Shown: in pieces, positions 4,714 to 24,200 of the stretch
Position numbering within the stretch: position 1 is the first letter of the stretch
Layout of the letters: each line of letters opens with the position of its first letter
From: an uncultured Eubacteriales bacterium
GTDB lineage: Bacteria; Bacillota; Clostridia; Oscillospirales; Acutalibacteraceae
Assembly (NCBI GenBank): GCA_951801675.1
Contig: CATONX010000003.1
Span: 62,001-126,000, forward strand
Length of the DNA: 64,000 nt
Reading direction: 5' to 3'
The notes under the pieces: generated by a model
The model's database searches: none
The model's input: only the letters and a program-made list of their open reading frames with translations
Told to the model about the DNA's origin: nothing
Made by a program: the position numbers and the translations under genes

Positions 4714-6078
4714 ATGGAAAACAAAACCCTCAGGCGGTTCTTTTCCTTTGGGGCGTCCCGGCCGCACGGCGGCGCGTCGGTGCCCCACCGGAAGAACACC
4801 GCGGACAGCGAGTCGGTGGTCATGCCGCCGCCCGAACGGGTGATCATTGCCATGCAGCAGCACATCGGCGCGCCCTGCGAGCCGGTGGTGAAGCCGGGCG
4901 ACCCGGTGGCGGTGGGCCAGGTGGTGGGGGACACGAAGGCGTTCGTGTCGGCACCCATCCACGCCAGCGTCTCAGGTACCGTCAAGGCAATCACCGAAAT
5001 CCAGCTGCCCGGCGGGCAGAAAACCAAGGCGGTTATCATTGAAAGCGACGGGGAGCAGCGGGTGCACGAAAGCGTGCAGCCCCCGGTCATCCAATCCAGG
5101 GAGGACTTTGCGGCGGCGGTGCGCGCGTCGGGGCTTGTGGGCCTGGGCGGCGCGGGATTCCCGGCTCATGTGAAGTTAAATCCCCCCAAGGACGCGAAGA
5201 TCGACACGCTCATTGTCAACGGCGCCGAATGCGAGCCCTATATTACCGCCGACTACCGGGAAATCATGGAGAACAGCTGGGACATCATGTCGGGCGTTTA
5301 CGCGGTCAAGGACCTTTTGGGCGTGGAAAACGTGATCATCGCCATTGAGAACAACAAGCCCGACGGCATCAAGGTCTTAAGCTCCATCGCCGATAACTCC
5401 AACGATCCGGATAACCAGGTGAACATCAAGGTTCTGCCCTCCCGGTACCCCCAAGGGGCGGAGAAGGTGCTCATCCAGGCAACCACCGGGAGAGTGGTCC
5501 CCACCGGCAAGCTTCCCAGCGACGTGGGCGTAGTGGTGATGAACATCACTTCCATCGCCTTTTTGTCCCGGTATATGAAAACCGGGATGCCCCTTACCAC
5601 CAAGCGGCTGACCGTTGATGGGTCCGCCATCTGGTCGCCGAAAAACGTGATCGTTCCCATCGGTACCCCCATCAAGGACGTGATCGCGTTTGCCGGGGGC
5701 TATAAGGAAGACCCCAAGAAGGTTATCATGGGCGGCCCGATGATGGGCCTTGCCATGGTGGACGATTCCCTTCCCGTTTTGAAGCAGAACAACGCCATTT
5801 TAGCCTTTGACGAAAAGGAAGCCAAGCTCATGGAGCCGCTGCCCTGTATCCGGTGCGGCAAATGCGTGCACGCATGCCCCATGAAGCTGATGCCCACCTC
5901 CATCGAGCGGCTCTATAAGGCAAAAGACGTGGAGGGTTTGCAGAAAGCGGGTGCTATGACCTGCATGGAATGCGGCTGCTGCGCGTTCGTATGTCCCGCG
6001 GGGCGGCGGCTGGTGCAGTCCATGCGCCTGTCTAAGGCCCTCATCAAAAACGCACCGAAGAAGGAGGCGAAGGGATAA
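4714..6078 (+). CDS. rnfC: Rnf complex subunit C
   Basis: RnfC is a peripheral subunit of the Rnf ferredoxin:NAD+ oxidoreductase, where it carries FMN/NADH-binding and two 4Fe-4S clusters. The 454 residues show the N-terminal biotinyl-like part, a GLVGLGGAGFPAHVKL glycine-rich loop near residue 133 and NGAECEPY near 170. The cluster motifs CIRCGKCVHACP and CMECGCCAFVCP lie near 380 and 420. The start has GGAGGAAACACA just upstream. It is the first gene of rnfCDGEAB and its stop overlaps the rnfD start by one base. Rnf uses electron flow from reduced ferredoxin to NAD+ to pump Na+ or H+. Confidence 0.97.
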   Translation: MENKTLRRFFSFGASRPHGGASVPHRKNTADSESVVMPPPERVIIAMQQHIGAPCEPVVKPGDPVAVGQVVGDTKAFVSAPIHASVSGTVKAITEIQLPGGQKTKAVIIESDGEQRVHESVQPPVIQSREDFAAAVRASGLVGLGGAGFPAHVKLNPPKDAKIDTLIVNGAECEPYITADYREIMENSWDIMSGVYAVKDLLGVENVIIAIENNKPDGIKVLSSIADNSNDPDNQVNIKVLPSRYPQGAEKVLIQATTGRVVPTGKLPSDVGVVVMNITSIAFLSRYMKTGMPLTTKRLTVDGSAIWSPKNVIVPIGTPIKDVIAFAGGYKEDPKKVIMGGPMMGLAMVDDSLPVLKQNNAILAFDEKEAKLMEPLPCIRCGKCVHACPMKLMPTSIERLYKAKDVEGLQKAGAMTCMECGCCAFVCPAGRRLVQSMRLSKALIKNAPKKEAKG

Positions 6079-9941: not shown

Positions 9942-12086
9942 ATGCCCATCTATTTGGGGCACCGCGCCGAAGATGGCCGGGAGCAGCTGCTTTTGGACCA
10001 TTTGATCGGCGTCGCCCGGTACGCGCAGGCCTTCGCCGATTCCTTTGGCGCCGGTGCGCTCGCGTACCAAATCGGACTTGCCCACGACGCCGGCAAGTAC
10101 TCGGATAAGTTTCAGCGCCGTATTCGCGGCGCACCCGTGCAGGTGGACCATTCCACCGCGGGCGCGCAGCTGATGATCGAGCGGAGAAACGCCCCTGCCG
10201 CCTACTGCATCGCCGGCCACCACGGAGGCCTGCCCGATGGCGGCGGACAATATGACCAGGCGCAGCCTACCCTGTCTGCCCGTAAAGAAAAGCCAGTGGA
10301 ACCTTACGATGGGTTTTGGCGGGAAGTGACGCTCAAGCCGGCGGTATTTGATCCCCCAACCATCTTAGGCGTCGGGGGATTTACCGCCGCCTTTTGGATT
10401 CGAATGCTCTTTTCCTGCCTGGTGGACGCAGACTATTTGGATACCGAGGCCTTCATGCAGGGAAAAAAGCCGCCTAGGGGAGAATACGCTTCCATCGAGG
10501 AGCTGCTCGCCCGCCTGTACCGGGATATAGCCCGCTTTGAAAACCCCGAGGGCGATCTCAACCAGGAACGGTGCGCCATTTTGGAGGCCTGCCTCGATGC
10601 GGGCCGGCAGCAAAGCCCCGGGCTTTTTACCCTGACGGTCCCCACCGGCGGAGGAAAAACCATTGCCTCCCTGGCCTTTGCTCTCGAGCACGCGAAGAGG
10701 CATCACCTCAAGCGCGTGATCTACGTCATTCCGTTTACCTCAATTATCGACCAGACAGTGAGCGAGTTTGAAAAGATCCTGGGGAAAGAGAATGTGCTCG
10801 CCCATCATTCCGGCGTGGAATATGAGGATGGGGAGGGGAACGATTCCGACCAGTCCCGCAAAAAGCTGGCGGCGGAAAATTGGGACATGCCCGTAGTTGT
10901 CACCACGGCCATGCAGTTTTTCGAATCCCTCTTTTCCAATAAGACCTCCCGCTGCCGCAAGCTTCATAACATCGCCCAGAGCGTGATCATCTTTGACGAG
11001 GCCCAGACCATACCGCTGCCATACCTAAAGCCCTGCGTGCGCGCCATCGCGGAGCTGACCGTCAACTACCGCACGTCCTGCGTGCTGTGTACCGCCACCC
11101 AGCCGGCATTAGGCCCCTTATTTGCCGAAATTCACCCCACCCTTCAAAGCCGGGAGCTATGCCCGCCGCTCAACTGCGATGTGTTTCGCCGGGTGCAGTA
11201 TACGAATCTGGGCAAGCTTTGCGACGAGGAGCTGGCCGCCCGGCTCAACGGACATGCCCAGGTCCTCTGTGTGGTCGGTTTGCGAAAGCATGCACAAACG
11301 ATTTTCGCGCTTCTTGAGCAGAAGGGAAGCGTGCACCTGTCCACTCTGATGACCCCGCGGCACCGCCGCATCATGCTTCGGCTCATCCGCAGACAGCTCA
11401 AAAGGGGTAGGACCTGCCGGGTGGTTTCCACCAGTCTCATTGAAGCGGGGGTGGACGTGGACTTCCCCGTGGTTTACCGGGCCGAAGCAGGACTCGACTC
11501 GGAAATTCAAGCCGCCGGGCGCTGCAACCGGGAGAAAAAGCGTCCAACAGAGGAAAGCTTCGTCTATCTTTTTACACCGGAGGACACCTATACCGCCCAT
11601 TTGCCGCATATGCTCCGCCGGCCCATGGAAACTGCCCGGGATGTAGTCCGCGGCTGCAGAGAGCTCGACGCGCCCGAAACCATCGAACGGTATTTTACCC
11701 AGCTTTATCAGCTCAGCGGGCCGCTTCTGGACCAGAAAAACGTGGTATCCCAGTTCGAGAAGGCCCAGGGAAGCTATCCCTTTGCCACCGTAGCAGGGGA
11801 CTTTCGCTTGATCGAAACGAACACCCGCGCCGTCATCATTCCCAAAGGGGCGCAATACCGCAAGCTGGACGAACGGCTGCGAAGCGGGGAACGGTCCCGG
11901 GCGTTGTTTCGCAAGCTGGGGGCCTTTACGGTCAGTGTCTACGAATGGCAGTTTGAGGCCCTGGCGGGCCGGGGCGCGCTGGAATTTCTCGACGAGCAGG
12001 TCGCCATTCTGCTAGACTTGACGCTTTACGACGGGAAAACCGGGCTGCAAATGCCGGAAGGTTACGGGGAAGCGCTCTTTGTATAA
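9942..12086 (+). CDS. cas3: CRISPR-associated helicase-nuclease Cas3 (type I-C)
   Basis: Cas3 unwinds and degrades target DNA after Cascade recognises it. This 714-residue protein has an N-terminal HD nuclease domain with HDAGK near residue 45 and a DHS motif near 70. A superfamily 2 helicase follows, with Walker A PTGGGKT near 235, FDEAQ (the DEAH-box variant) near 350, and the helicase C-terminal motifs TSLIEAGVDVDF and QAAGRCNRE near 500-525. The ATG at 9942 has GGGGG 8 bases upstream; the longer upstream frame is AT-rich and not protein-like. It leads the cas operon. All key residues seen appear intact, so interference may still work. Confidence 0.95.
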   Translation: MPIYLGHRAEDGREQLLLDHLIGVARYAQAFADSFGAGALAYQIGLAHDAGKYSDKFQRRIRGAPVQVDHSTAGAQLMIERRNAPAAYCIAGHHGGLPDGGGQYDQAQPTLSARKEKPVEPYDGFWREVTLKPAVFDPPTILGVGGFTAAFWIRMLFSCLVDADYLDTEAFMQGKKPPRGEYASIEELLARLYRDIARFENPEGDLNQERCAILEACLDAGRQQSPGLFTLTVPTGGGKTIASLAFALEHAKRHHLKRVIYVIPFTSIIDQTVSEFEKILGKENVLAHHSGVEYEDGEGNDSDQSRKKLAAENWDMPVVVTTAMQFFESLFSNKTSRCRKLHNIAQSVIIFDEAQTIPLPYLKPCVRAIAELTVNYRTSCVLCTATQPALGPLFAEIHPTLQSRELCPPLNCDVFRRVQYTNLGKLCDEELAARLNGHAQVLCVVGLRKHAQTIFALLEQKGSVHLSTLMTPRHRRIMLRLIRRQLKRGRTCRVVSTSLIEAGVDVDFPVVYRAEAGLDSEIQAAGRCNREKKRPTEESFVYLFTPEDTYTAHLPHMLRRPMETARDVVRGCRELDAPETIERYFTQLYQLSGPLLDQKNVVSQFEKAQGSYPFATVAGDFRLIETNTRAVIIPKGAQYRKLDERLRSGERSRALFRKLGAFTVSVYEWQFEALAGRGALEFLDEQVAILLDLTLYDGKTGLQMPEGYGEALFV

Positions 12087-12135
12087 ACTGAAGCGGCAGA
12101 AGCCTGCCGGCGCGAAACGATCCATATACACACGT

Positions 12136-12168
12136 ATTTCAGTCCACGCCTCTCTTGCAAGGGGGAAC
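12136..12168 (-). repeat. Solitary CRISPR-repeat-like element, inverted relative to the array
   Basis: Read on the minus strand, these 33 bases match the array repeat at 26 of 33 positions by my alignment. The 3' end GCGTGGACTGAAAT differs from the repeat by one base, so the part that becomes the crRNA 5' handle is nearly intact while the hairpin half has drifted. It stands alone in the cas3-cas5c gap and lies antisense within any cas operon transcript. It could encode a crRNA-like regulatory RNA on the minus strand, act as an anti-repeat in the cas mRNA, or be a relic of an older array. Confidence 0.75.
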
Positions 12169-12355
12169 TGTTGTCACCCCTTTGCGGTTACAGGTGGGGG
12201 ACTCCGGCGACGCCGTGAGGGCGTGGTACACCCTTTGCGGCTATGGCTGGCGGTGCATTTCAAGGAAAAAGAGGTGAAAGCGTAAGTAGCGTTTTGTTTG
12301 GCATTCCGATGCCACGCTGTATTCGTTGTTTTAAGTGAAAAGTGAGGTGAATCCA
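12169..12355 (+). promoter_or_regulatory. Structured leader between cas3 and cas5c
   Basis: This stretch has no credible gene. It holds two imperfect direct copies of a CACCC(C)TTTGCGG..TA..G.TGG motif (about 12175-12197 and 12228-12249). Between them is a possible hairpin (ACGCC-GTGAG-GGCGT), and a second possible hairpin (GTC.CCCC with GGGG.GAC) overlaps the first copy. It may regulate cas5c-cas8c-cas7c expression. Nothing here proves that. Confidence 0.35.
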
Positions 12356-13009
12356 ATGAGCAAAGGAATTCAAGTGGAGGTCTGGGGCCCCTATGCCCTG
12401 TTTACCCGCCCGGAGCTAAAGGTAGAGCGAGTAAGCTACGATGTCATCACACCAAGCGCAGCCCGGGGGCTAATAGAGGCCATCTACTGGCATCCGGGGC
12501 TGCGGTGGAGCATTGACCGCATTCATCTGCTCAGCCCCATCGCGTTTACCAACATCCGCCGCAACGAAGTCAAAAGCAAGCTGAGCGCTTCCACTGCGCG
12601 CAGCGCGATGATGGGAACCGGGAAGCTTCCCGCCCTTTATACCGGAGAGGACATTCAGCAGCGCGCGTCCATGGTGCTTACCGATGTGCACTACGTCATC
12701 GACGCCCATTTTGAGCTGACGGACAAGGCGGCCCCTTCCGACAACGAGGGCAAATTTATCGACATTGCCCGCCGCCGCCTCGCCCGAGGCCAGTGCTTTC
12801 ATCCGCCCTGCTTCGGTTGCCGGGAGTTTCCCGCTTCCTTCCGGGCATGGGAGGGAGGACCTGTACCCGCCATCAATGAAACCCGTGACCTGGGGCTGAT
12901 GCTGTACGACATGGATTATCGGAATCCCCGGGACATTCAACCCACCTTTTTCCGTGCAAAACTGGAAAAAGGGGTGCTGGAGGTAGCGGGGCAGGAGGTA
13001 CTGCGATGA
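12356..13009 (+). CDS. cas5c: CRISPR-associated protein Cas5c (pre-crRNA endonuclease, type I-C)
   Basis: In type I-C systems Cas5c (Cas5d) replaces Cas6: it cuts the repeat transcript and caps the crRNA 5' handle in Cascade. The 217 residues begin with QVEVWGPYALFTRPELKVERVSYDVITPSAARG, a characteristic Cas5 N-terminus, followed by an EAIYWHPG segment. The ATG at 12356 has GAGGTGA upstream; an upstream in-frame start at 12335 has no ribosome site. The stop overlaps the cas8c start as ATGA, so the two are translationally coupled. Confidence 0.93.
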   Translation: MSKGIQVEVWGPYALFTRPELKVERVSYDVITPSAARGLIEAIYWHPGLRWSIDRIHLLSPIAFTNIRRNEVKSKLSASTARSAMMGTGKLPALYTGEDIQQRASMVLTDVHYVIDAHFELTDKAAPSDNEGKFIDIARRRLARGQCFHPPCFGCREFPASFRAWEGGPVPAINETRDLGLMLYDMDYRNPRDIQPTFFRAKLEKGVLEVAGQEVLR

Positions 13010-14766
13010 TTCTCCAAGCGTTAACCAAGTATTACGACGCGCTGCTCACACAAGGCGCCATCTCGCCGCCCGGCTGGTGCGCCGCGAAGGTTTCCTATGC
13101 GCTGCACATCGGGGACGACGGGGAACTGCTGGACGTGTTTTCCCTCAAGCAGCCCTCTTCCGACGGCAAGCGGGAGGTGCCGCAGATTCTCCGGGTGCCC
13201 GAGCAGGTGAAAAAGACGGTAAACGTGGCGTCCAACTTTTTGTGTGACAACAGCGCTTACCTCCTTGGAATCGACGCCAAGGGCAAGCCGGCCCGGACCC
13301 TCGAATGCTTTACAGCGGCCCGCGCTCTGCACGAAGCGGTGCTGGCGAACACGGATTCGCCTGCCGCCCGGGCAGTCCTGGCCTATTTCGCCCGGTGGGA
13401 GCCGGATAAGGCCGCGGCCCACCCCGCTCTGCAGGAAACCCTGTCCGATATCCTCAAAGGCGCCAACCTGGTCTTTTGGGTAAACGGTGGGTACGCCCAG
13501 GAGGACCCTGCCGTTCGTGCCGCGTGGGAGGGCTGCCAAGGCGAAGAGGCGGCACGCTGCGGCCGGTGCCTGGTTACAGGGGAACATGCCCCCATCGCCG
13601 TGCTGCACCCTTCCATCAAGGGAGTGAAGGACGCCCAATCCAGCGGCGCGTCTCTCGTTTCGTTTAATGCCGACGCCTTCGAGTCCTACGGCAAGGAGCA
13701 GCGGGACAAGACCGGCCAGGGCTTCAATTCGCCGGTTGGTAAGCGGGCGGCCTTTGCCTACGGGACGGCGCTCAACCAACTGCTGCGGGACCGGGAGCAT
13801 GTGCAGGTGGTGGGGGACACCACCATCGTCTACTGGGCTGAGGACGGGGAGCCTCTGTGTCAGGACCTCTTCGGCGCAGGCATGTTCGGCATGCCCAGCA
13901 GCCAGATTACCCAAAACGACTTAAACCGGGCCATCAAAGCGCTAGCAAAGGGCAAGCCGGTAAAGGTAAACGATGCCCTGCTAAACCCAGACAACCATTT
14001 TTATGTGCTCGGCCTTGCGCCAAGCGCGGCCAGAGTCAGTGTGCGGTTCTTCTATATGGATACCCTCGGCCGCATTCTGACCCATCTGCACGAGCATCAC
14101 GAGCGGCTGCGCATCGAACCGATGGGGCTGTATCCCCCATCCATCTGGCAGCTGCTCAGCGCCACCGTCAACCAAAACAGCCGGGATAAGAAAGCATCCC
14201 CGCCCATGGCGGGCGCCATGGTCCGGGCGGTGCTAACCGGCGGCATGTACCCGGTTTCCCTGTTTGAGAACACCATGATGCGCATCCGCGCCGAGCGGGA
14301 GGTGTCCCACAGGCGCGCGTCGATTCTGAAAGCATTTTTCCTGCGCAATCGGACTTTTTCCGTTCCAGAGGAGGTATTAGACGTGAAGCTAAACGAGGAA
14401 AGCACCTATCTGCCCTACGTGCTCGGTCGGCTTTTTGCCGTGCTGGAGAAAATACAGCAGGATGCCAATCCGGGCATCAACGCGACCATCAAGGATAAAT
14501 ATTTCAACAGTGCCATGGCGATGCCGGCGGGAATTTTTCCGCTTTTGACCAAGCTCTCCCAGAGCCATCTGCGTAAACTGGAGGACCGCCGCCGTATTTA
14601 CTATGAAAGAATCATCACCGAATTAAAGGGCCGCATGGAGGAAACCCTGCCCGCCCGCCTGTCTTTGGTGGAACAGGGCGCCTTTGACCTTGGGTATTAC
14701 CATCAGGTTCAAAAGCTTTATACCAAGAAACAAAAGGAGGAAAAAGAAGATGTTGGAGCCGATTAA
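13006..14766 (+). CDS. cas8c: CRISPR-associated protein Cas8c/Csd1 (type I-C large subunit)
   Basis: This is the large subunit of I-C Cascade, which recognises the PAM and recruits Cas3. The 586 residues start MILQALTKYYDALL, typical of Csd1. They carry CGRCLVTGEHAPIAVLHPSIKGV near residue 180-205 and LGLAPSAARVSVRFF near 335. In this subtype a small Cas11 subunit is made from an internal start near the 3' end of the gene, and the same may happen here. It overlaps cas5c by 4 bases and cas7c by 17 bases. Confidence 0.94.
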   Translation: MILQALTKYYDALLTQGAISPPGWCAAKVSYALHIGDDGELLDVFSLKQPSSDGKREVPQILRVPEQVKKTVNVASNFLCDNSAYLLGIDAKGKPARTLECFTAARALHEAVLANTDSPAARAVLAYFARWEPDKAAAHPALQETLSDILKGANLVFWVNGGYAQEDPAVRAAWEGCQGEEAARCGRCLVTGEHAPIAVLHPSIKGVKDAQSSGASLVSFNADAFESYGKEQRDKTGQGFNSPVGKRAAFAYGTALNQLLRDREHVQVVGDTTIVYWAEDGEPLCQDLFGAGMFGMPSSQITQNDLNRAIKALAKGKPVKVNDALLNPDNHFYVLGLAPSAARVSVRFFYMDTLGRILTHLHEHHERLRIEPMGLYPPSIWQLLSATVNQNSRDKKASPPMAGAMVRAVLTGGMYPVSLFENTMMRIRAEREVSHRRASILKAFFLRNRTFSVPEEVLDVKLNEESTYLPYVLGRLFAVLEKIQQDANPGINATIKDKYFNSAMAMPAGIFPLLTKLSQSHLRKLEDRRRIYYERIITELKGRMEETLPARLSLVEQGAFDLGYYHQVQKLYTKKQKEEKEDVGAD

Positions 14767-15640
14767 AAACCGCTATGAATTTGTGATTTTGTTCGACGTG
14801 GAAAACGGCAACCCCAACGGGGACCCCGACGCGGGCAACCTGCCCCGGCTAGACCCGGAAACCGGTTACGGACTGGTGACCGACGTGTGCTTAAAACGCA
14901 AAATCCGCAACTATGTGGAAACCGTCAAGGAAGGAGAATCCGGCTATCGCATCTATATTAAGAGCGGCGTCCCGCTCAACCGCTCTGACAACGAGGCGTT
15001 TACCGGCCTTCAGATCGACCCCAAGACCATCAAGGACCTCAAAAAGAAAGACGACCAGCTGGACGCAAAGGTCCGGGACTGGATGTGCCGTGAGTTTTAC
15101 GACATCCGCACCTTCGGCGCGGTCATGACCACCTTCATGAAAAACAACCTCAACTGCGGGCAGGTGCGCGGCCCGGTACAGCTGAGCTTCGCCCGGTCGG
15201 TGGACCCCATCGTTCCTCAGGAAATCACCATCACCCGTGTCGCCATCACCACCGAGGACGCCGCCCAGGATAAGGTCACCGAAATGGGCCGCAAATACAT
15301 TGTGCCTTATGCCCTCTACCGGTGCGAAGGATATGTTTCCGCCAACTTAGCCCGCAAGACCACCGGGTTTTCCGAGGAGGACCTGGCTCTTCTCTGGCAG
15401 GCGATTCTCAACATGTTTGAAAACGACCGCTCCGCCGCCCGGGGCAAGATGGCCGTGCGCCAGCTCATCGTCTTCCGGCACGACAGCGAGCTTGGCAACG
15501 CCCCCGCTTACAAGCTATTCGACACGGTTACCGCCCGGTGCCGCGACGGGGTGGTGAGCCCCCGCTCCTATCGGGATTACGAAGTGCTGGTCGACACCGA
15601 TTCCCTGCCGGAGGGCGTGACCTGCACGCAGATGGTGTGA
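14750..15640 (+). CDS. cas7c: CRISPR-associated protein Cas7c/Csd2 (type I-C backbone)
   Basis: Cas7c forms the helical backbone of Cascade along the crRNA. The 296-residue protein has the FDVENGNPNGDPDAGNLPR start that defines Csd2 and an RTFGAVM segment near residue 122. RGPVQLSFARSVDPI follows near 142 and GLLWQAI-like helices lie later. The ATG at 14750 has AGGAGG about 9 bases upstream; the frame reads further upstream inside cas8c, but those codons look non-coding. Its stop overlaps the GTG of the broken cas4. Confidence 0.95.
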   Translation: MLEPIKNRYEFVILFDVENGNPNGDPDAGNLPRLDPETGYGLVTDVCLKRKIRNYVETVKEGESGYRIYIKSGVPLNRSDNEAFTGLQIDPKTIKDLKKKDDQLDAKVRDWMCREFYDIRTFGAVMTTFMKNNLNCGQVRGPVQLSFARSVDPIVPQEITITRVAITTEDAAQDKVTEMGRKYIVPYALYRCEGYVSANLARKTTGFSEEDLALLWQAILNMFENDRSAARGKMAVRQLIVFRHDSELGNAPAYKLFDTVTARCRDGVVSPRSYRDYEVLVDTDSLPEGVTCTQMV

Positions 15641-15911
15641 CCGGGGTTCGGGAAGAAGAGTACCTGGCCATCTCCGGTATCCAGCATTTCGCCTTTTGCC
15701 GCCGACAGTGGGCGCTGATCCATCTGGAACGCCAATGGGTGGAAAACCTGCGCACCGTGGACGGACAGCTCTTTCACCAGCGTGCCCACGACGCGGCGCA
15801 GACCGAAAGCCGGGGAGATACCCTGCTTGTCCGCGGCCTTCCAGTGGTTTCCCATACCCTCTGCGTGCAGGGCGTGTGCGACGTGGTGGAGTTTCACCGG
15901 GACGCAAACGG
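15637..15911 (+). pseudogene. cas4: cas4 5' fragment (truncated, fused out of frame to cas2)
   Basis: About 90 residues of Cas4 remain, from a GTG start overlapping the cas7c stop. They include the IQHFAFCRRQWALIHLE start with the first cluster cysteine and GVCDVVEFH with one metal-binding Asp. The sequence then stops resembling Cas4: the E-x-K nuclease motif and the C-terminal cysteine cluster are missing. After about 15911 the same frame runs out of phase through cas2 remnant DNA to a stop at 16032. Family proteins have about 200 or more residues. Cas4 trims and selects new spacers, so this copy should be dead. Confidence 0.85.
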
Positions 15912-16145
15912 CTGCGCCAAGTTGCCAAGCAGTGCGTCAACTATGGGCAGCGGGTACAGAACTCCGTGTTTGAATGCCTGCTCGACCCTGCCCAGTGCCG
16001 GATGCTGCAAAGCAAGCTGCGCGCGATCATAGAGGAGGAAAAGGACAGCCTGCGGTTTTATTATCTTGGCAATCACTATCAAACCAAGATCGAACACTTC
16101 GGCGCGAAATCCGGATACGAACCGGAAGGGGTTTTGTTGGTTTAG
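15900..16145 (+). pseudogene. cas2: cas2 remnant lacking its start and first strand
   Basis: In the third frame, 81 codons match type I-C Cas2 from GRKRLRQVAKQCVNYGQRVQ to the C-terminus GAKSGYEPEGVLLV. The usual first 15 or so residues (start Met, first beta strand and the conserved Asp of a TYDV-like motif) are absent. No start codon with a ribosome site is available. Cas2 bridges two Cas1 dimers in the integrase. With cas1 missing and this gene headless, spacer acquisition cannot run from this locus. Confidence 0.87.
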
Positions 16146-16304: not shown

Positions 16305-16590
16305 GTCGTCCCTCGCGAGAGGGGCGTGGATTGAAATTTGTTTCTTCTGGTAGATGGTCGAACGCCCCCAGGTCGTCCCTCGCGAGAGGGGCGTGGATTG
16401 AAATTGTGCTGTCAGACACGGGGCTGTTGGATACCGCCTGGTCGTCCCTCGCGAGAGGGGCGTGGATTGAAATCAGCTCATGCTGTCGGCGCCCACCACC
16501 TTAGATAGTCGCCCCTCGCGAGAGGGGCGTGGGTTGAAATGTTTCCGACCGCTCTACTTTGATAACCCCTTTTGGTCGCCCTTCGCGAGA
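16305..16590 (+). CRISPR. Type I-C CRISPR array, four spacers
   Basis: Repeats of 33 bases start at 16305, 16372, 16441 and 16508. A fifth, truncated copy starts at 16575 and keeps only its first 16 or so bases, with changes. The repeat opens with GTCGTCCCTCGCGAGAGG and ends GTGGATTGAAAT, the classic I-C form, with a CCCTC-GCGA-GAGGG hairpin. The fourth copy has two changes. Spacers are 34, 36, 34 and 34 bases. Decay is at the leader-distal end, as expected, so the array reads left to right, the same way as the cas genes. Confidence 0.96.
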
Positions 16591-21215: not shown

Positions 21216-24200
21216 CTATCTGGTAATACGGGTGGAAAGCGGCAGCGTATCTTCCAGCCACGCAAAGTCGGCACCGGCAGCTTTTACGGTAAAGGTGCGG
21301 GGGCCGGGAGTTCCCACGCTGAGGGTATAGGTCCAGGTGCGAACGCCGTTTTCATCCACATACGTGCATGTGGTAGGGGCAAGGCCGGTGCCGGTTTCAT
21401 TGAAGAGGCGGACCTTGGCAACATTAGTGGAGGTCTTGATGGTGGCGGTAATGGGCTCATTGACCTTGCCGGCCGGGTCTATCGTCGCCTCAATGAGTTT
21501 GACCTCACCGCCCGGAGTAACCGATGCGTCGCCGATATAGAAGCACACAAACACACCGGTGTCTTCGCCGTCCGCATACACGTGCAGGGTACGGTCACCC
21601 TTGGTAGCCAGGGAGAAGGTCAGGGTCCAAGTAATGGAACCGTCTCCGTTCTCCTTGCTTTCGCGACTGGTTGCCAGGCCGTTGCCGTTTTCGCTGACCA
21701 GGTATGCCTTCTCAACGGTGTCCGGCGTGGTGATGGTGACCGTGATGGTCTCGTTGGGCGCGTAGATTTCCTTGTCGGCACAAGCGGAGGTCTCAACAGG
21801 AGTAGGAGGCACATCCGGGTCAAAGCCGTTTGTGTAGATGACCGGGTAGGTGGGCAGCTGAAGGTTTAGAACCTTGTCTTTCACGTCTTCGCCCAGATAG
21901 AAGCCGCCGATGTGGGGAGGCTGGTTGTAGGCGGTGTTCTGGCTGGCGACGCCGATGCGGTAGCCCGAGTCATGCATGAGGGTGTAGATCATGTAATCGG
22001 TGGGAATGGTGGTGGAGTAAATGCGCAGCTCGGTGGAATCCACGTCACGGGCCACGATTTCCTCACGCCAGTCGCCGAAGATGTCGGCGGTCAGGGTCGG
22101 ATTGCTCTTGGTTCCATTGTTGGTCTGGGTTCCTTCCAGCACGGCCAGAGTATCCACGCGGTTGGTGGTTTCATTGTACTTGTAAATGGTCTGTGTGCTG
22201 CCGTCGGGCATTTCATGGAGCAGGTCGCCGTCCCAGTAGGTGGCCCAATTGCAGTTCATACTTCTGGGCATGGGAGCAACCGCTTCTCCGTAGACATTGT
22301 AAATCGAGCCGGAACCGGACGCCCAGACTTCAAAGCCGGGATTTGAGGTGATGTTTGCCGCAACGCCCCGTCCAACATCTGAGTTAGTATACTTTTTCCC
22401 GAAGAGAAACGCGCCGTTGGCAGCGTCACATACGAAGAAGTTCAGAGGCGCGTTGGCGTCCTCCTGCGGCATCATAAGCTGCAGGCCCTGCCGATCCGGG
22501 AAGAAGGGGCCTACATGCAGTGCGTCGCCGTGGGCCAGGTTATACGAGGAGGCTCCCTTGCCGTTTTGGCTCCACAGGAGAGAACCGTCGTAGTTGATTG
22601 CCAGCGGGCCGGTGGTAATTTCATCGAAGCCGTCGCCGTCCAGATCGCCGGCGATGGTATAATGCGCGCCCTTGCCCTCGTAATCCTTCGGATTGGGCAG
22701 CTTGCTGGAGTCAAAGTTCCAGTACGGCTGTAACTTGCCGTCCACGACAAAGTATGCCCCCATGGTGACCTTGGTGTAGTAGCCGCGCTGCTGGAGAATG
22801 GCCGGCCGGGTCTTGGAGGAATCCGCCGGATCGGGCGCGTAGAACATGGTGTTCTGGAAGCGGTCGGAGCGGTTGCCCCAGTTATCGCCCCAGAGGTTCG
22901 TGTCCACGATGGGGTTGGGGTAATCGACGCAGTCCATCAAAGCGCCGGTTTCGCCGTTGACAAGGATGAGGAACTCGCCCTGGCGCGGGTCGATAACATG
23001 CCCATTGGAAGCCACCCAGTCCGCCGTCGGATCTCCGATGGTGGCGACGCAGTACTTGTCTTCCATGGTCATGACACCCTCTTCGTTGGGCGTGTAGATC
23101 TTCGTTCCGTCGGCAGCCTTGACGGTGAATTCCGCTTTGCCGTCCTGATCGAAGTCATAGAACAGGAACTGGTTGTAATGGGCGCCGGAGGGCTCGTTGT
23201 AGCCGATGTCCACACGCCACAGGAGGGTGCCGTCCATTTTGTAGCAGTCAAAATAGGTGGGGCTGGTCATACCGGTTTTGCCGGAATCCATAGAGTTGCT
23301 GGGATACCATTTGACCACGATTTCATACTCGCCGTCTCCATCCGCGTCCGCTACCGACGCGTCGTTGATGGAGTAGCTGCCGATGGTGCCGGACCCGTCG
23401 TGAGTCGGTCGGTCGGCGGGCTTTTGAACCGCAATGCCCAGATAGTTCTGGCCCAGCGCCGTGAAGGGCTGACTCTTGGTGGACGTTGTGCCCTGTATGG
23501 ATTCAATGACGTAAACGTCGCCTGCTTTGCCGTGCGCGTCTACAAAGTTGGTTTTGGTGGCAATGGGCTCTGCGTTGACCTTCTGATCGTTGCGGTAGAC
23601 ATTAAAGGAAATGCCGGTGTTATACTCGGTGGAAAGCAGCCGCCAGCTGACGAATACCCCGTCCTGCGACTGCATAGCCACCACGCCCCGATCCAGCCAC
23701 TCGGTGGAACGAGCGATCGCATTGTACCCCGTGAAAGCCGGCCGGATGACTACCGTAAAGGTGGGGACAATGTCGAGAGCATTGTTGTATTCCGACGGGA
23801 ACGCGCCGGTGAATACATACGCGCCTTCTTTTTGGGGGTTGAATTCCGGGGTGCTCTGCCAAATAACCGCAATGTCCTTCACGGTTTTATCACCCATGGT
23901 AGCGCTGACGGTAGCGGGCAGTGTGATCCGGTCGCCCACGTACGCGTAGAGGTCGTGCGGCTGGATGATGGACATAATGGAGTTGGCGGAATAGCTCTTT
24001 GTATATGCGCAGAAGTTGTCAAGACCCGTGGTAAAGGTATGGTTTTTACCGCCCAGGCGGATGCCCTGGATGGTGATGCGGGTGATGCCGCCGGCGGTTC
24101 TTGCATCCAGCGGAATGTCCGCGTAAGTAAGGGCTGAATCGGGCTCGCCACGCTTGGAAATCACCAGAGTAGCGGTGTTTGCTTTAAAATGAAAGGTCAG

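What the first reader, a model, noticed from the sequence alone, without database searches (positions are those of the whole stretch)
12136..12168. Lone, inverted CRISPR-repeat-like element inside the cas operon
Seen: 33 bases between cas3 and cas5c match the reverse complement of the array repeat at 26 of 33 positions. The crRNA-handle end differs by only one base. Known: single degenerate repeats near cas genes can encode crRNA-like RNAs that guide Cascade to repress cas promoters (CreR) or toxin promoters (CreA of CreTA). Inference: on the minus strand it could give such an RNA, with the pseudo-spacer beginning ACGTGTGTATATGG. On the plus strand it would sit in the cas mRNA as an anti-repeat able to pair with pre-crRNA and affect cas5c-cas8c-cas7c translation.
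Basis: partly seen in the sequence, partly recalled or inferred. Interest (0 to 1): 0.75.

Follow-up and report, generated by a model that had tools for sequence, protein, structure and literature searches.

The report
Decayed self-regulating CRISPR guide gene
The lone backward repeat is the worn-out remnant of a small RNA gene that, in many related gut bacteria, appears to make their type I-C CRISPR complex switch down its own genes; here the guide no longer matches its promoter, so it probably no longer works.

Summary
Window 12136-12168, minus strand, matches the array repeat at 26 of 33 bases; the next best non-array place in the window reaches 21. In 80 related type I-C loci, 38 carry a lone minus-strand repeat in the same cas3-cas5c gap, followed by a 20-30 nt guide and a terminator hairpin. 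In 32 of these 38 the guide matches the locus's own cas5c promoter region next to a TTC/TTT PAM, with mismatches almost only at guide positions 6, 12 and from 18 on, the pattern expected of type I Cascade guides. A second sample of loci repeats this (11 of 13 candidate elements). This is the anatomy of a CreR gene, a crRNA-like autorepressor of cas genes, in type I-C. The window copy keeps the place, orientation, repeat and a small hairpin. It has no convincing target in its gap, window or genome, no detectable promoter, two broken stem pairs, and cas1 is deleted next door. I conclude it is a decayed creR, not a working one. CreR is a known kind; the CreA/toxin and anti-repeat readings are not supported.

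The parts
12136..12168 (-). degenerate CRISPR repeat (psi-R) of the creR relic; crRNA handle end at 12136-12145 (GGACTGAAAT)
   Evidence: 26/33 to the array repeat; positional equivalents in 38 of 80 related I-C loci
12110..12135 (-). pseudo-spacer ACGTGTGTATATGGATCGTTTCGCGC (guide), no recognisable target left
12094..12109 (-). small terminator-like hairpin CGGCAGGCTTCTGCCG followed by CTTCAGTTTA; equivalent to the long terminator hairpins of relatives but weaker
   Evidence: only terminator-like site in 12000-12420; folding energy -14.3 against about -20 to -41 in relatives
12169..12355 (.). rest of the gap, where relatives keep the creR promoter (minus) and the cas5c promoter with the CreR target; neither is detectable here
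9942..12086 (+). cas3
   Evidence: TIGR01587 and TIGR01596
12356..13009 (+). cas5c (crRNA-processing subunit of type I-C)
   Evidence: TIGR01876, 158 bits
13006..14766 (+). cas8c
   Evidence: TIGR01863, 468 bits
14750..15640 (+). cas7c
   Evidence: TIGR02589, 344 bits
15638..16145 (+). remnant of the adaptation genes: N-terminal part of cas4 joined out of frame to the C-terminal part of cas2; cas1 missing
   Evidence: TIGR00372 below its cut-off on one frame, TIGR01573 on another frame
16305..16540 (+). array of four 33-nt repeats with three spacers between them, plus a truncated fifth repeat at about 16575

Best explanation
[quoted passage not shown] In relatives the anatomy is: a promoter pointing away from cas5c, one degenerate repeat, a guide of roughly 20-30 nt, then a terminator hairpin (shown by sequence). 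The first ~17 nt of the guide match the promoter region of the cas5c-cas8c-cas7c operon next to a TTC/TTT PAM (shown). By inference, Cas5c cuts the RNA at the repeat and Cascade loads it; pairing limited to the seed-proximal part lets Cascade sit on the promoter and repress it without Cas3 destroying the DNA, as published for CreR and CreA. The system would thus turn itself down, and be released when crRNAs or anti-CRISPRs take Cascade away. In the window the repeat, orientation, position and a small hairpin survive, but target and promoters are not detectable, so the regulation is probably lost.
For: 38 of 80 related I-C loci have a lone minus-strand repeat in the cas3-cas5c gap, mostly 50-70 nt after the cas3 stop, and gap length tracks its presence (Mann-Whitney p about 1e-12). 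In 32 of 38 the guide matches its own gap at 12 or more of 17 bases with a TTY PAM, against 62 of 1482 cross-pairings. Mismatch is 0-3% at positions 1-5, 69% at 6, at most 6% at 7-11, 78% at 12, and chance-like from 18 on. Most other guides have a target with a TTA PAM or a one-base slip. Further loci repeat this: 11 of 13 candidate elements, same profile. 29 of 37 have a 10/12 or better sigma-70-like promoter towards cas5c. The window's nearest tree neighbours beyond its sibling, L010 and L013, carry the element. Decay here: no target (p about 0.9), no promoter, two of eight stem pairs broken (sequence), weak hairpin, cas1 deleted.
Against: No RNA or expression data. A genome-wide target search with relaxed PAM or bulges was not run, so a target in trans cannot be fully excluded. 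Promoter scans cover the sigma-70 consensus only. The genome holds other scattered, degenerate I-C-like repeat arrays, so a stray repeat is conceivable. The sibling L009 lacks the element, so no close relative shows an intact version of this very copy.
Confidence: 0.85

Rival explanations
1. The window element is still a working regulatory guide (CreR or CreA) that represses a gene elsewhere or uses a target too diverged to see.
For: Repeat handle nearly intact, hairpin still present. One PAM-flanked 14/17 match lies at 5420 minus inside rnfC, a score reached by 1 of 300 shuffled guides over the window.
Against: That match has mismatches at guide positions 3 and 7 in the seed, plus 11, and lies in a coding region. 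The only other genome hit, one mismatch at C22:13052, is inside prfB and compatible with chance. No promoter is seen beside the repeat.
Confidence: 0.08
2. A stray single repeat from a relic or orphan CRISPR array that landed in the gap and never was a regulator.
For: The genome and its sibling carry several orphan, degenerate I-C-like arrays outside the cas locus.
Against: Position, orientation and the following hairpin equal those of creR in the relatives, including the next tree neighbours L010 and L013. A dozen or so stray repeats in 2.36 Mb would hit this 269-bp gap with a chance of roughly 0.001-0.002 (own estimate).
Confidence: 0.06
3. Plus-strand anti-repeat in the cas mRNA that pairs with pre-crRNA and tunes cas5c translation.
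For: The plus strand of the element is complementary to the array repeat at 26 of 33 bases.
Against: In relatives the stem part departs freely from the array repeat (alignment; own-array repeats), while handle, minus-strand promoter and guide-promoter match are kept. The element usually lies 150-350 nt upstream of the cas5c start and upstream of the cas5c promoter.
Confidence: 0.02

Closest known systems
CreR, cas-regulating RNA (Liu et al. 2023, Cell Host Microbe, doi 10.1016/j.chom.2023.08.005; read only through reviews PMC13131331 and PMC12737573)
   Same: Degenerate repeat plus guide near cas genes, limited complementarity to the cas promoter, own promoter, no toxin gene
   Different: The review in hand names I-B, I-E and V-A; here the system is I-C, the target is the cas5c operon promoter, and processing would be by Cas5c because I-C has no Cas6. 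The window copy lacks target and promoter.
CreA of CreTA (PMC8501985, PMC9458426)
   Same: Repeat plus guide with pairing at positions 1-5 and 7-11 and a TTC PAM; the one-repeat form ending in a terminator resembles H. hispanica creA
   Different: In the relatives the matched promoter is that of the cas5c operon, not that of a toxin; in the window there is no match
Standalone repeats and mini-arrays of Shmakov et al. 2023 (NAR, doi 10.1093/nar/gkad495; not held here, content recalled from memory)
   Same: Conserved single repeats near cas genes with guides partly complementary to cas promoters
   Different: Could not check whether the I-C group described here is already in their list
Racr solitary repeat units (PMC10651486)
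   Same: Single repeat that mimics the array repeat; an I-C example exists
   Different: Racrs lie in viruses and plasmids and inhibit Cas; this one is inside a bacterial cas operon and relatives carry a promoter-matching guide

Membership tests
CreR (relatives) | ectopic degenerate repeat next to the cas operon with crRNA handle kept | tested here: met
   38 of 80 loci, handle mostly without mismatch; 12 of 85 further loci carry a minus-strand handle
CreR (relatives) | guide with PAM-flanked partial complementarity to its own cas promoter region | tested here: met
   32 of 38 loci and 11 of 13 further elements; mismatch at 6, 12 and from 18
CreR (relatives) | own promoter and 3' end | tested here: met
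   consensus scan only: -10/-35-like boxes beside the repeat in many loci, strong hairpin after the guide
CreR (relatives) | RNA is made, loaded into Cascade and represses cas genes | not testable with these tools
   needs RNA and expression data
CreR (window copy) | ectopic degenerate repeat in the creR position | tested here: met
   12136-12168
CreR (window copy) | target in its own cas promoter region | tested here: not met
   best 9/17, p about 0.90; gapped p 0.99; cas3 upstream p 0.73
CreR (window copy) | promoter for the RNA | tested here: not met
   0 sigma-70-like sites at 12000-12420; best 7/12 on minus
CreTA | guide-repressed toxin next to creA | tested here: inconclusive
   no guide-matched promoter found beyond chance; CreT is a tiny RNA gene that is hard to see
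Rfam families | match to a curated RNA family | tested here: not met
   no match up to E 1 at 11950-12420

The most novel reading that the evidence does not exclude
Type I-C systems of Clostridia and some relatives carry a widespread, repeatedly lost CreR that represses only the Cascade operon promoter inside the locus (cas5c onward, not cas3). Its guide and promoter change together over evolution, and it decays when the adaptation genes are lost, as in this window.
Probability: 0.55. Interest if true: 0.55.

Novelty: new member of a known kind. Interest (0 to 1): 0.5.

Why it matters
It extends RNA-guided self-repression of CRISPR-Cas, with a very clean seed-pairing signature across dozens of genomes, to the common type I-C, which processes its guides with Cas5c. 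It points to cultured strains in which to test how I-C Cascade levels are set. The signature (match at 1-5, 7-11, 13-17, free at 6 and 12) is natural evidence that I-C Cascade ignores every sixth base in vivo. The window shows how such a regulator looks when it decays in a locus that has also lost its adaptation genes.

Tried and rejected
Window pseudo-spacer against viral contigs: no exact 22-base match, so no support for a normal immune spacer. Targets in the own genome: only one 1-mismatch hit, inside prfB, with more hits for the reversed control pattern. The 14/17 match at 5420 inside rnfC: rejected for seed mismatches and coding location. Rfam: nothing. Alignment with sibling L009: gap is unrelated, element absent. 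The two key papers (CreR 2023, Shmakov 2023) are not in the library. A first pass over the second sample of loci ignored strand and was redone with orientation checked.

Full report
Observation. The 33 bases at 12136-12168, read on the minus strand, match the array repeat at 26 of 33 positions, and the handle end differs at one base. Over both strands of the 64-kb window the next best place outside the array reaches 21 matches. The surrounding genes are cas3 (9942-12086), cas5c (12356-13009), cas8c (13006-14766) and cas7c (14750-15640), then a cas4 fragment joined to a cas2 fragment with cas1 missing, then four repeats.

Relatives. A search with Cas5c gave 80 related loci. 38 of them have a lone repeat in the cas3-cas5c gap, on the minus strand in every case counted, mostly 50-70 nt after the cas3 stop. 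Loci without it mostly have a very short gap (Mann-Whitney p about 1e-12). Read on the minus strand the order is: -10-like TATA box in many loci, repeat with varied stem but constant handle, a guide of roughly 20-30 nt, then a GC-rich hairpin. On the plus strand, between the element and cas5c, 29 of 37 loci scanned have a sigma-70-like promoter with 10 or more of 12 consensus bases.

Target test. The guide of each locus was compared with the gap between its element and cas5c. Without any PAM demand the best match reached the floor of 300 shuffles (p 0.003) in most loci, and the best sites had PAM TTC in 23, TTT in 8 and TTA in 3 of 38 rows, window included. With a TTC/TTT PAM demanded and no position exempted, 32 of 38 relatives had at least 12 of 17 matches, against 62 of 1482 guide-gap pairs taken from different loci, some of them related. 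Mismatch fractions by guide position were 0-3% at 1-5, 69% at 6, at most 6% at 7-11, 78% at 12, 0-16% at 13-17, and at chance level from 18 on. Published creA guides also pair at 1-5 and 7-11 beside a TTC PAM (PMC8501985); free sixth positions are a known property of type I Cascade (own knowledge). Of the six others, L013 and L018 have a target with PAM TTA, L023 one with a one-base slip, L066 a shorter one, and L010 and L040 none. For L016, which has two units, the second guide is the one that matches.

Second sample. Searches of the family, order and phylum gave 85 further loci. 12 carried a minus-strand handle upstream of cas5c; 11 of 13 candidate elements had a target by the same match rule, with the same mismatch profile. 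One of the 11 (L138, two overlapping handles in one locus) is doubtful.

What the window copy is. It sits in the same slot and orientation, followed by a small terminator-like hairpin (12094-12109). But its guide ACGTGTGTATATGGATCGTTTCGCGC has no target in the gap (best 9 of 17, p 0.90; gapped p 0.99), none upstream of cas3 (p 0.73), and none that convinces in the window or genome. No promoter is seen on either strand. Of eight stem pairs in the array repeat two are broken (read from the sequence). The hairpin energy, -14.3, is weaker than in all relatives scanned. In a Cas5c tree the window and its sibling L009 group with L010 and L013, which carry the element, while L009 has none; the gap of L009 is unrelated in sequence. 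The presence label changes at least 24 times on the tree, so gain or, more likely, loss is frequent. I therefore read the window copy as a creR in decay, in a locus that has also lost cas1.

Mechanism. Shown: anatomy, conservation, guide-promoter match. Inferred: transcription, Cas5c processing, loading into Cascade, repression of the cas5c operon without DNA cutting because pairing ends after about 17 bases, and release when crRNAs or anti-CRISPRs compete for Cascade, as reported for CreR in I-B, I-E and V-A (PMC13131331; PMC12737573).

Novelty. CreR is a known kind. The review at hand names I-B, I-E and V-A. Whether the I-C group was already listed by Shmakov et al. 2023 could not be checked. 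I file the family as a new member of a known kind and the window copy as its relic.

Noticed in passing
15638-16145: cas4 and cas2 are fused by a deletion that removed cas1, so the system has lost spacer acquisition while cas3, cas5c, cas8c and cas7c are open; the sibling L009 has a long array.
   Followed up: partly
L181 (own genome C24:14305-14720, 21680-21755), own genome C24:26587-26886, and L182 (C1:180807-181018): Orphan I-C-like repeat arrays far from cas genes: spacing mostly 60-68, conserved TTGAAAT handle, but stems that differ from unit to unit. The sibling genome G143 has further sets outside its cas locus.
   Followed up: partly
L016:4066-4165: This creR locus has two repeats 67 nt apart with an extra promoter-proximal spacer (TACTGTGACGAGC...) before the promoter-matching guide: either a new spacer taken up into creR or an ancestral two-unit form.
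   Followed up: partly
12178-12253: The gap holds two imperfect copies of CCCTTTGCGGYTA..GG 53 nt apart (repeat finder D19); the gap has no match in the two other genomes of the genus and its origin is unknown.
   Followed up: no
L027:2414-2974: In L027 an extra stretch of about 250-300 bp sits between the cas5c promoter and cas5c compared with its relative L012, flanked by shared sequence (GTGACRGGAGTCGAAC ... CACCTTAA); perhaps an inserted element.
   Followed up: no
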